A DNA stretch of 64,000 bases from Gardnerella vaginalis (GTDB taxonomy: Bacteria; Actinomycetota; Actinomycetes; Actinomycetales; Bifidobacteriaceae), in contig NZ_JBETXJ010000002.1 of the NCBI RefSeq assembly GCF_040427915.1, forward strand, positions 372,001 through 436,000. The letters are read 5' to 3'. The translations under genes were made by a program, and so were the position numbers. Under the pieces are notes generated by a model, which did no database searches, was not told where the DNA came from, and worked only from the letters and a program-made list of their open reading frames with translations. Positions 1,946 to 43,700 of the stretch are shown one piece after another. Numbering within the stretch: the first letter of the stretch is position 1; each line of letters begins with the position of its first letter.

Positions 1946-2400
1946 GGTAGAGATTCGAGATTTTTCGCAGCGGATGAAGCGAACCTCAGCATCTTTGATG
2001 GTGACTCGCTGAAGCAGCAAGAAAAATCGAGAATCTCAGGCGATTAAGCAATACGCAATTGCTCAAGCACGTAAGAGGGCTGGGTGATTCTTGGTCGAAC
2101 AGTATAAGAGCGGCAGCCGATACCAAATAATACAATGATCAACCACTACAAACAAACTTCAACCAAAAACAAAAAATTAAAGCCAAATCGGAACAACCGC
2201 AACAACAACCAACACGCAAGAGGCGAAGCGTTGTGCGAATCGACGACTTCGAGCTGCATAGCGCGCGAGAAGTCACCTCGATTCGCTGAGCCGCTTAAAT
2301 GTAAAGTCCAGTGGACTTTACATGCGACGAAGGCGTGAGCGCGGCTAATCCGCGCGAGCGTAGAAACACCCAGCCCTCACACAACGCTAAATAGGAAAAT
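1946..2400 (+). ncRNA. Large structured RNA element, copy 1 (with a 280-nt expanded second arm)
   Basis: Homologous to the element at 43469. Domain 1: a 17-nt stem, 1950-1966 (GAGATTCGAGATTTTTC) with 2021-2037 (GAAAAATCGAGAATCTC). It is perfect except for a central CGAG/CGAG, which forms a tandem G-A motif. Inside lie helix 1978-1982/2006-2010 (AGCGA/TCGCT) and a hairpin CATC-TTT-GATG extended by TCA/TGA. Domain 2: helix 2076-2086/2367-2377 (AGGGCTGGGTG/CACCCAGCCCT, perfect 11 bp). It encloses an A/C-rich, G-poor linker (about 2120-2218), nested stems 2226-2230/2292-2296, 2235-2243/2278-2286 and 2245-2250/2269-2274, and a 12-bp-arm hairpin at 2299-2323. The G-A motif exists only in plus-strand RNA, which gives the orientation. 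No convincing protein is encoded. It lies between a divergent and a convergent gene, so it is probably its own transcript. The ends are approximate. Confidence 0.72.
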
Positions 2401-22067: not shown

Positions 22068-22139
22068 CGAACCTTTCTCCTATGCCGTCGACCCTACTAT
22101 GAGCCGCCGCACCCCTAGGTGCCCTTTTCGACAATTTTT

Positions 22140-43223: not shown

Positions 43224-43468
43224 AACACAAAGCTCCTTACTCACCAAACTCGTAAACGCATAGAATGCGTCGAAACAAGCCTCTCAAACTAATCCAAAAT
43301 AAATAAAGGTCTCGGTAATACTGCAATTAACGCTTTTATGATTACCACTTTATTTAGAATTTCAGCTTTTGGTTAATAGCCTATAATCGCCGTAAAGAGT
43401 TTGCATCACACTAAATGATGATTTTTATTTATGATTCTTGAAGCTTGTGTAATACCAGAGAATGATAG

Positions 43469-43700
43469 GTAGAGATTCGAGATTTTTCGCACTGAATGAG
43501 ATGAACCTCAGCATCTTTGATGGTGATTCATCGAATGAAGAAGAAAAATCGAGAATCTCGGTGATAAAAACCACGCAAAAGTCCTAGATATTCAGAAGGT
43601 TTGATGTATTTCTCTACGAGCAATAAAAGAGGAGCGTAGCGACGGGACTTGCGAGGAGAGAAATACTCAAACCTCGCGCAACAATAAGTAAGGAAATATC
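43469..43700 (+). ncRNA. Large structured RNA element, copy 2 (compact form)
   Basis: Shares with copy 1 (1946) the 17-nt stem with the tandem G-A centre (43472-43488/43543-43559) and an identical 24-nt apical hairpin region, GAACCTCAGCATCTTTGATG then GTGA. Helix 43500-43504/43528-43532 reads GATGA/TCATC where copy 1 has AGCGA/TCGCT (three compensatory pair changes). The second arm, AGGTTTGA (43597-43604) with TCAAACCT (43667-43674) and TATTTCTC/GAGAAATA (43607-43614/43658-43665), replaces copy 1 AGGGCTGG/CCAGCCCT, again with compensatory changes. The tail CGCGCAAC..TAAGTAAGGAAAT matches copy 1. A weak promoter, TTGAAG-17-AATGAT (43438-43466), would start transcription at the first stem. It lies between the divergent adaptor gene and the convergent rRNA terminator. 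Confidence 0.72.

What the first reader, a model, noticed from the sequence alone, without database searches (positions are those of the whole stretch)
1946..2400. A dispersed, structured RNA element supported by covariation between its two copies
Seen: copies at 1946 and 43469 share a 17-nt stem with an identical tandem G-A centre and an identical 24-nt apical region. Helix AGCGA/TCGCT in copy 1 is GATGA/TCATC in copy 2 (three double substitutions that keep pairing). The second arm AGGGCTGG/CCAGCCCT becomes AGGTTTGA/TCAAACCT (three more). Loops and tails (ACGCA, CRCAAC..TAA) are conserved. Neither copy encodes a plausible protein, and both lie between a divergent and a convergent gene. Established: compensatory changes in helices mark selected RNA structure. 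Inference: a large non-coding RNA. The size and host range recall structured RNA classes of Firmicutes and Actinobacteria such as the raiA motif, which I could not test.
Basis: partly seen in the sequence, partly recalled or inferred. Interest (0 to 1): 0.85.

Follow-up and report, generated by a model that had tools for sequence, protein, structure and literature searches.

The report
Mosaic folded repeats in Gardnerella chromosomes
A family of short non-coding DNA repeats scattered between genes of the vaginal bacterium Gardnerella keeps the same folded shape on one strand while its letters, its loops and even whole halves are exchanged between copies; what the shape is for is unknown.

Summary
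But the two copies are two of about 26 in this 1.6 Mb Gardnerella-type genome. Hairpin 1 is found in 12 of 189 Bifidobacteriaceae genomes searched; four can be named, all Gardnerella. Nothing in Rfam matches the two copies. Across 83 copies from ten genomes hairpin 1 covaries strongly (228 doubly changed cells against 88 in shuffles), and the second helix is rebuilt with different letters in each clade. Both domains carry G-A/G-A internal loops beside helices. G-U pairs outnumber A-C mismatches (36 to 8 cells), so the + strand is probably the one kept foldable, as RNA or single-stranded DNA.

'A large non-coding RNA' is only partly supported. Copies swap halves and tips, host palindromic inserts, flank an inversion, decay to scars or vanish at orthologous loci, and show no fixed orientation to genes; no promoter-like site was found at either window copy. 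I read it as a BOX-like mosaic of dispersed non-autonomous repeats. No IS200/IS605-type transposase over cut-off and no IS110 was found in the 12 genomes. Unexplained: 25 of 26 copies lie on one replichore here, though not in a relative.

The parts
1946..2399 (+). copy 1, element of type B with a palindromic insert in domain 2
   Evidence: (L010)
1950..2037 (+). copy 1 hairpin 1: outer helix 1950-1966 with 2021-2037, G-A/G-A internal loop, inner helix and apex
   Evidence: fold; positions; covariation
2076..2096 (+). copy 1 domain 2, 5' arm AGGGCTGGGTGATTCTTGGTC
   Evidence: (type B copies)
2093..2114 (+). conserved motif GGTCGAACAGTATAAGAGCGGC of type B
2140..2215 (+). A/C-rich, largely unpaired stretch of the type B loop
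   Evidence: fold; type B folds
2236..2361 (+). inserted palindromic module (P-like repeat)
   Evidence: absent from L013, L019; P family
2367..2377 (+). copy 1 domain 2, remaining 3' arm CACCCAGCCCT
2378..2399 (+). 3' tail CACACAACGCTAAATAGGAAAA
   Evidence: tails
43468..43697 (+). copy 2, element of type A, downstream of a 5S rRNA gene that lies on the other strand
   Evidence: L001
43472..43559 (+). copy 2 hairpin 1: outer helix 43472-43488 with 43543-43559
   Evidence: fold
43597..43674 (+). copy 2 domain 2: arms 43597-43615 and 43657-43674, inner helix GCAA/TTGC next to GA/GA
43615..43636 (+). conserved motif TACGAGCAATAAAAGAGGAGCG of type A
43675..43697 (+). 3' tail CGCGCAACAATAAGTAAGGAAAT

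Best explanation
A Gardnerella-specific family of non-autonomous, modular, dispersed intergenic repeats, comparable in kind to the pneumococcal BOX elements. A unit has a 5' leader, hairpin 1 (helices separated by G-A/G-A internal loops), a linker with ACGCA, domain 2 (a long helix, a G-A/G-A loop and a 4-bp helix, enclosing 10 to 312 nt of exchangeable loop) and a tail that in this genome reads roughly CGCRCAACA-N-AARTAAGG. Shown here: the structure is kept by compensatory changes across species; copies exchange tips and whole halves, flank an inversion, receive palindromic inserts and decay. Inferred: the folded single strand is the signal that a trans-acting factor, not identified, recognises, as ssDNA or RNA; copies spread and homogenise within each species mainly by non-allelic recombination through shared modules and the palindromic P repeats that often abut them.
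For: About 26 places in the genome; hairpin 1 in 12 of 189 family genomes. Hairpin 1: 83 copies, 9 of 30 pairs doubly changed, 228 doubly changed cells against 87.5 (sd 11.3) in shuffles, collapse when partners are slid by 1-3 columns. Domain 2: the 4-bp helix is GCAA/TTGC, GCAC/GTGC, GCGC/GCGC, AAAC/GTTT, GAAC/GTTC, ACAA/TTGT or, with one G-U, ACAG/TTGT, over loops of 10-312 nt; one outer pair is C-G, U-G or U-A in different copies of G110. GA stands opposite GA in all 57 type A and 23 type B copies in which both arms were found with letters, GA not being required. G-U 36 against A-C 8 cells. Orthologous locus with type B here and type A in G109; tip-allele exchange at another. About 4 kb between inverted copies at 447 and 451 kb is inverted relative to G090, G013 and G109. 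Scars or absence in G109. Convergent sites 29 against divergent 11 of 101 classified. BOX precedent: modular, varying in the inner module, inserted into one another (passages of PMC3049150).
Against: No gain by transposition was proven. The cleanest absence (G109, L185) is better read as a loss, because this genome, G090 and G013 are filled. L003 may be a gain: G109 lacks the element there and its sequence resembles that beside the other rRNA operon, but a block with P ends, not a clean insertion, separates the two (by eye). No terminal inverted repeats beyond shuffles in six copies tested, no target duplication seen. No partner enzyme: Y1_Tnp 0 of 12 over cut-off, two weak matches at 14-15 bits in G043 and G060; IS110 0 of 12; reverse transcriptase 1 of 12, not in this genome. 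Gene conversion of a tip carries both sides of a helix at once, so within-genome covariation counts are inflated. Counted as genome events G-U against A-C is 19 to 8 (p 0.05), as pair types 10 to 5 (p 0.3). TTTCTAT opposite AGAGAAA breaks one domain 2 pair in 11 of 57 type A copies.
Confidence: 0.6

Rival explanations
1. A multi-copy structured non-coding RNA: intact copies are transcribed from their own leader and the folded RNA, with its G-A motifs, binds a protein or another RNA.
For: Compensatory changes with G-U intermediates; in G060-type genomes many leaders share a GGATAT or GAATAT box a few nt before the hairpin (read by eye); a similar loop motif in both domain 2 versions.
Against: No promoter-like site at either window copy, and no terminator-like site apart from one on the other strand beside the 5S gene; no -10-like box in this genome's leaders by eye; loci are lost, scarred or swapped between close relatives; no Rfam match.
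Confidence: 0.2
2. A relic REP/BIME-like family moved as single-stranded DNA by an HUH tyrosine transposase (RAYT or IS200/IS605) that has been lost.
For: GT(A/G)G precedes the hairpin in most copies of this genome and its close relatives, as in the REP head described in PMC2817692 (passages); hairpin with conserved mismatches; more G-U than A-C on the + strand.
Against: 0 of 12 genomes with Y1_Tnp over cut-off; the hairpin is about 90 nt and the unit about 200-450 nt, not 20-40 bp; the head is GCAG in G111.
Confidence: 0.1
3. Cis-acting RNA in gene tails: the repeat works in the 3' ends of mRNAs as a stabiliser, processing site or terminator of whatever gene it lands beside.
For: Convergent sites are commoner than divergent (29 against 11); ERIC and Correia elements alter transcripts in other bacteria (passages of PMC10969869).
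Against: Between co-directional genes orientation is not significantly biased: 25 same strand as the genes, 36 opposite, p 0.2, and copies on the opposite strand would put the other strand into the mRNA.
Confidence: 0.1

Closest known systems
BOX elements of Streptococcus pneumoniae
   Same: Modular dispersed repeats; end modules fold, the inner module varies in number and takes little part in the main fold; repeats inserted into one another (passages of PMC3049150).
   Different: No sequence comparison with boxA/B/C was made; here the loop varies by exchange of different loops and by palindromic inserts, whole domains are swapped, and G-A/G-A loops recur; the host is an actinomycete.
REP / BIME with RAYT transposases
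   Same: GT(A/G)G head directly before an imperfect palindrome in this clade; mosaic neighbourhoods.
   Different: Unit about 200-450 nt, head not kept in all species, no Y1 transposase over cut-off in 12 genomes.
ERIC, Correia and other bacterial MITEs
   Same: Mostly intergenic, tens of copies, foldable, variable between strains (passages of PMC10969869; abstract of PMC2229807).
   Different: No terminal inverted repeats in six copies tested and no target duplication seen; two separate domains instead of one end-to-end hairpin.
raiA motif and other large structured RNAs
   Same: Large, multi-helix, covarying (general knowledge of such RNAs).
   Different: No match at the two copies in Rfam 15, 4227 families; multi-copy and exchanged between loci.

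Membership tests
BOX-like modular dispersed repeat (kind, not sequence family) | Many intergenic copies in one genome | tested here: met
   26 places; 14 of 111 arms overlap a mechanical ORF of 120 aa or more
BOX-like modular dispersed repeat (kind, not sequence family) | End modules with an exchangeable inner module | tested here: met
   types A and B, loop 10-312 nt
BOX-like modular dispersed repeat (kind, not sequence family) | Common sequence descent with boxA/boxB/boxC | not tested
   no BOX sequence was compared
REP/RAYT | GT(A/G)G head before the palindrome | tested here: inconclusive
   in most copies of G000, G109, G090, G013; GCAG in G111, GTGA in many copies of other species
REP/RAYT | Unit of 20-40 bp (abstract of PMC3733652 in the listing) | tested here: not met
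   hairpin about 90 nt, unit about 200-450 nt
REP/RAYT | HUH (Y1) transposase in the host | tested here: not met
   PF01797 over cut-off in 0 of 12; two matches below it
MITE | Terminal inverted repeats | tested here: not met
   leader against tail, six copies: 6-9 matched letters, reached by 30 to 195 of 200 shuffles
MITE | Target-site duplication at a filled/empty pair | tested here: inconclusive
   one clean filled/empty locus, probably a deletion; L003 not clean
raiA motif (Rfam) | Match to the covariance model | tested here: not met
   no hit at gathering level or at E up to 10
IS110 bridge RNA | IS110 recombinase in the genome | tested here: not met
   PF01548 in 0 of 12 at E 0.01
retron or group II intron RNA | Reverse transcriptase in the genome | tested here: not met
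   PF00078 in 1 of 12 at E 0.01, not in this genome
independent ncRNA gene | Transcription | not testable with these tools
   no RNA-seq held; promoter scan negative at two copies

The most novel reading that the evidence does not exclude
A new RNA- or ssDNA-based mobile repeat whose recognition code is a ladder of G-A/G-A motifs with short helical rungs shared by two domains, moved by an enzyme class not yet linked to such repeats, and confined to part of the chromosome (25 of 26 copies on one replichore here) by that mechanism.
Probability: 0.2. Interest if true: 0.8.

Novelty: new variant of a known kind. Interest (0 to 1): 0.5.

Why it matters
It adds a repeat family that my literature searches did not find described and that shapes Gardnerella genomes: copies flank an inversion, recombine with one another and run into unresolved stretches in draft assemblies. 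The structure is well supported and points to a binding partner that can be fished for. It also shows why compensatory changes alone do not prove an RNA gene: a foldable repeat that exchanges its parts leaves a similar mark.

Tried and rejected
Rfam at permissive thresholds: only eukaryotic families below their gathering scores. Plasmid collection: no match. Phage collection: 63 Synechococcus phage records; the 20 shown match 30% of the query at E 0.08 and none of the 63 covers 80%; taken as chance. IMG/VR: 2 contigs match the 5' arm pattern; L190 continues without the element, L191 was not picked up by my longer arm pattern; taken as chance. A direct repeat CCAAGTAAGG at both ends in this genome looked like a target duplication; dropped because G060-type genomes lack it (by eye). 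Ms1 RNA was considered; the paper reports gaps too short for it in Bifidobacterium (passages, PMC9130861). A fixed cis-regulatory position was rejected on gene orientations. One-replichore location as a rule was rejected: in G109 6 of 13 model matches lie on one side; interrupted copies found later in the fetched G109 stretches are not in that count.

Literature: eight searches showed no paper on these repeats in Gardnerella; several listings were capped (15 of 1,554, 15 of 1,493, 15 of 4,402, 12 of 956, 10 of 125) and only open-licence PMC papers are held. The main texts of PMC3733652, PMC2267715, PMC8040213, PMC12306157 and PMC10969869 do not contain the word Gardnerella (term counts).

Full report
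What was checked. Each folds better than every dinucleotide shuffle made. No Rfam family fits them.

It is a repeat family. The window lies in a 1.64 Mb genome (G000:C2:372001-436000). A search with the 98-nt hairpin of copy 2 gives 34 matches at E up to 10; 21 cover at least 90 of the 98 letters, and with five partial or interrupted copies I count 26 places. A covariance model of hairpin 1, built from 19 of the own-genome copies, hits 12 of 112 genomes of the GTDB genus and the same 12 of 189 genomes of the family, 16 genera; both searches ran with stricter filters that lose weak matches. The 12 are 1.5-1.8 Mb genomes. Four can be named from equal contig lengths as Gardnerella vaginalis 1500E, G. 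piotii UGent 18.01, and G. vaginalis strains GED7760B and KA00225; that the rest, this genome included, are Gardnerella is inferred. In draft genomes some copies run into stretches of N.

Anatomy. I collected 111 distinct 5' arms from 12 genomes; 79 parse as complete hairpin 1, in ten genomes, and 32 do not: they are interrupted, cut by N or a contig end, fused to other bodies, or (L129, L169) have a changed arm. Hairpin 1 is an outer helix (7 + 8 bp with a GA/GA loop between), a 2-bp step, further GA/GA loops, an inner 6-bp helix and a small apical hairpin. GA stands opposite GA(A) in the outer loop in 72 of 79 copies; in the inner loop in 66, and in the middle one in 48, of the 71 copies of standard length. 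Domain 2 comes in two versions, type A (57 parsed) and type B (23 parsed), which share a long outer helix, then GA opposite GA, then a 4-bp helix, then a loop of 10 to 312 nt. That parse required GA; without the requirement GA is opposite GA in the same 57 and 23, and in no copy with both arms readable is it otherwise, while 5 of 62 A arms and 8 of 32 B arms had no recognisable 3' arm and one had N. In type B much of the loop is A/C-rich and unpaired. In copy 1 of the window a palindromic module is inserted near the 3' end of that loop and interrupts the 3' arm.

Covariation. On a model-fitted alignment of 83 copies (76 distinct, ten genomes), 95.0% of cells pair, against 87.6% when the 3' letters are shuffled and 29-53% when partners are slid; 228 cells are changed on both sides against 87.5 in shuffles; nine of 30 pairs show double changes. 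One of the 30 pairs (columns 24/77) was misplaced by me and never pairs; it lowers the score. The number of doubly changed pairs and of further pair types does not exceed the shuffles (230 and 500 of 500 reach them), as when a few alleles dominate. Between clades the outer C-G becomes U-A. In domain 2 the 4-bp helix has seven pairing versions, one with a G-U, and a few broken ones: GCAA/CTGC (two type A and two type B copies), GCAC/ATGC and AAAC/ATTC (one each). One outer pair is C-G, U-G or U-A in different copies of G110, and U-G or U-A in G075; against this, TTTCTAT opposite AGAGAAA breaks a pair in 11 of 57 type A copies. Wobbles (36 cells) outnumber A-C mismatches (8), which would be wobbles on the other strand; as genome events it is 19 to 8, p 0.05, and as pair types 10 to 5, p 0.3. 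So the + strand is probably the one selected, but the test is modest, and DNA as well as RNA would fit.

Dynamics. At one locus with about 95% identical flanks this genome has type B and G109 type A (L009/L163); at another only the tip allele differs (L006/L167). Four copies join a 5' tip half of one allele to a 3' half of another: L009, L168, L176 and L169. A palindromic repeat, P, with 28 places in this genome (41 matches, 10 self-matches dropped, neighbours within 1 kb merged), sits beside many copies. In eight copies (two here, six in G109) it interrupts hairpin 1 at the same place, after the 5' side of the inner helix, whichever allele that helix has; a G090 copy has nearly the same junction (L044). 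The copy-1 locus and the L019 locus are reduced in G109 to P-like sequence plus the 3' end of type B plus the tail. At the L013 locus G109 has 58 nt between two anchors where this genome has 587 and G090 has 572; G013 is filled too, so loss in G109 is likelier than gain. At L003, beside an rRNA operon, G109 has no element and resembles the sequence beside the other operon here, so this copy may be a gain, but the two differ by a block with P ends, not by a clean insertion (by eye). About 4 kb between inverted copies at 447 and 451 kb is inverted relative to G090, G013 and G109. At the L014/L166 locus the copies have opposite orientations, and this genome keeps the 3' scar of a + copy beside its - copy (by eye). 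One locus is conserved throughout (L007/L164, 97.5% over 2.8 kb).

Place in the chromosome. dnaA lies at 513 kb; 25 of 26 copies lie on one replichore. The largest arc holding at most one copy is 62% of the chromosome, reached in 0 of 20,000 uniform simulations, also after merging neighbours within 10 kb. P repeats, as a control, are not so restricted: 10 of 28 places lie in that arc against 1 of 26 copies, Fisher p 0.005. The arc was chosen after seeing the data. In G109 (dnaA at 0.6 kb) 6 of 13 model matches lie on one replichore and 7 on the other; interrupted copies, which the model misses, are not counted. A block that carries copies lies on the other arm there, so the restriction may follow gene blocks rather than the replichore; this is an inference.

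Gene context. Of 111 arms, 101 have an ORF of at least 120 aa on both sides: both genes on the opposite strand 36, convergent 29, both on the same strand 25, divergent 11; 14 of the 111 arms overlap a mechanical ORF of that length. Convergent exceeds divergent (p 0.006), and the gene beyond the 3' end more often points towards the element (65 of 101, p 0.005). There is no consistent orientation as for a riboswitch or leader. No promoter-like site is found at the two window copies.

Mechanism. Systems in which a fold drives mobility were checked through their enzymes in the 12 genomes: Y1 transposase 0 over cut-off, with two matches of 14-15 bits below it; reverse transcriptase 1 (G109 only); IS110 0. 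TnpB/IscB-type nucleases and other transposase families were not searched. I favour a BOX-like non-autonomous family with an unknown trans factor that reads the fold, spreading and homogenising largely by recombination. Shown: fold, exchange, decay, range. Inferred: the factor, the form (DNA or RNA) and the route of gain.

Literature. The BOX comparison rests on passages of PMC3049150, REP on passages of PMC2817692 and the listed abstract of PMC3733652, MITE features on passages of PMC10969869 and the abstract of PMC2229807. That sheared tandem G-A pairs are stable in DNA and RNA in a Y-GA-R context is recalled, not taken from a call.

Noticed in passing
G000 genome-wide, e.g. G000:C2:225411-225520; P-like insert in copy 1 at window 2236-2361: A second dispersed palindromic repeat family (P) with about 28 places in this genome, abutting or inserted into the elements, in hairpin 1 at a constant position.
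   Followed up: partly
G000:C2:447127-451309 (L015, L008) against L036, L157, L043, L176, L158: About 4 kb between two inverted copies is inverted in this genome relative to three others.
   Followed up: partly
L115, L144, L151: The 5' arm of the element is fused to a different body that contains a further repeat module and type B-like motifs; similar in three genomes.
   Followed up: no
window 22073-22132, minus strand: Actino-ugpB sRNA (RF02927), 82 bits.
   Followed up: no
L001 and L003 (G000:C2:415468 and 297079): Two copies sit just downstream of 5S genes; at the L003 site G109 has no element.
   Followed up: partly
G109:C1:1142897-1143295: The only reverse-transcriptase match (PF00078) among the 12 Gardnerella-type genomes.
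   Followed up: no
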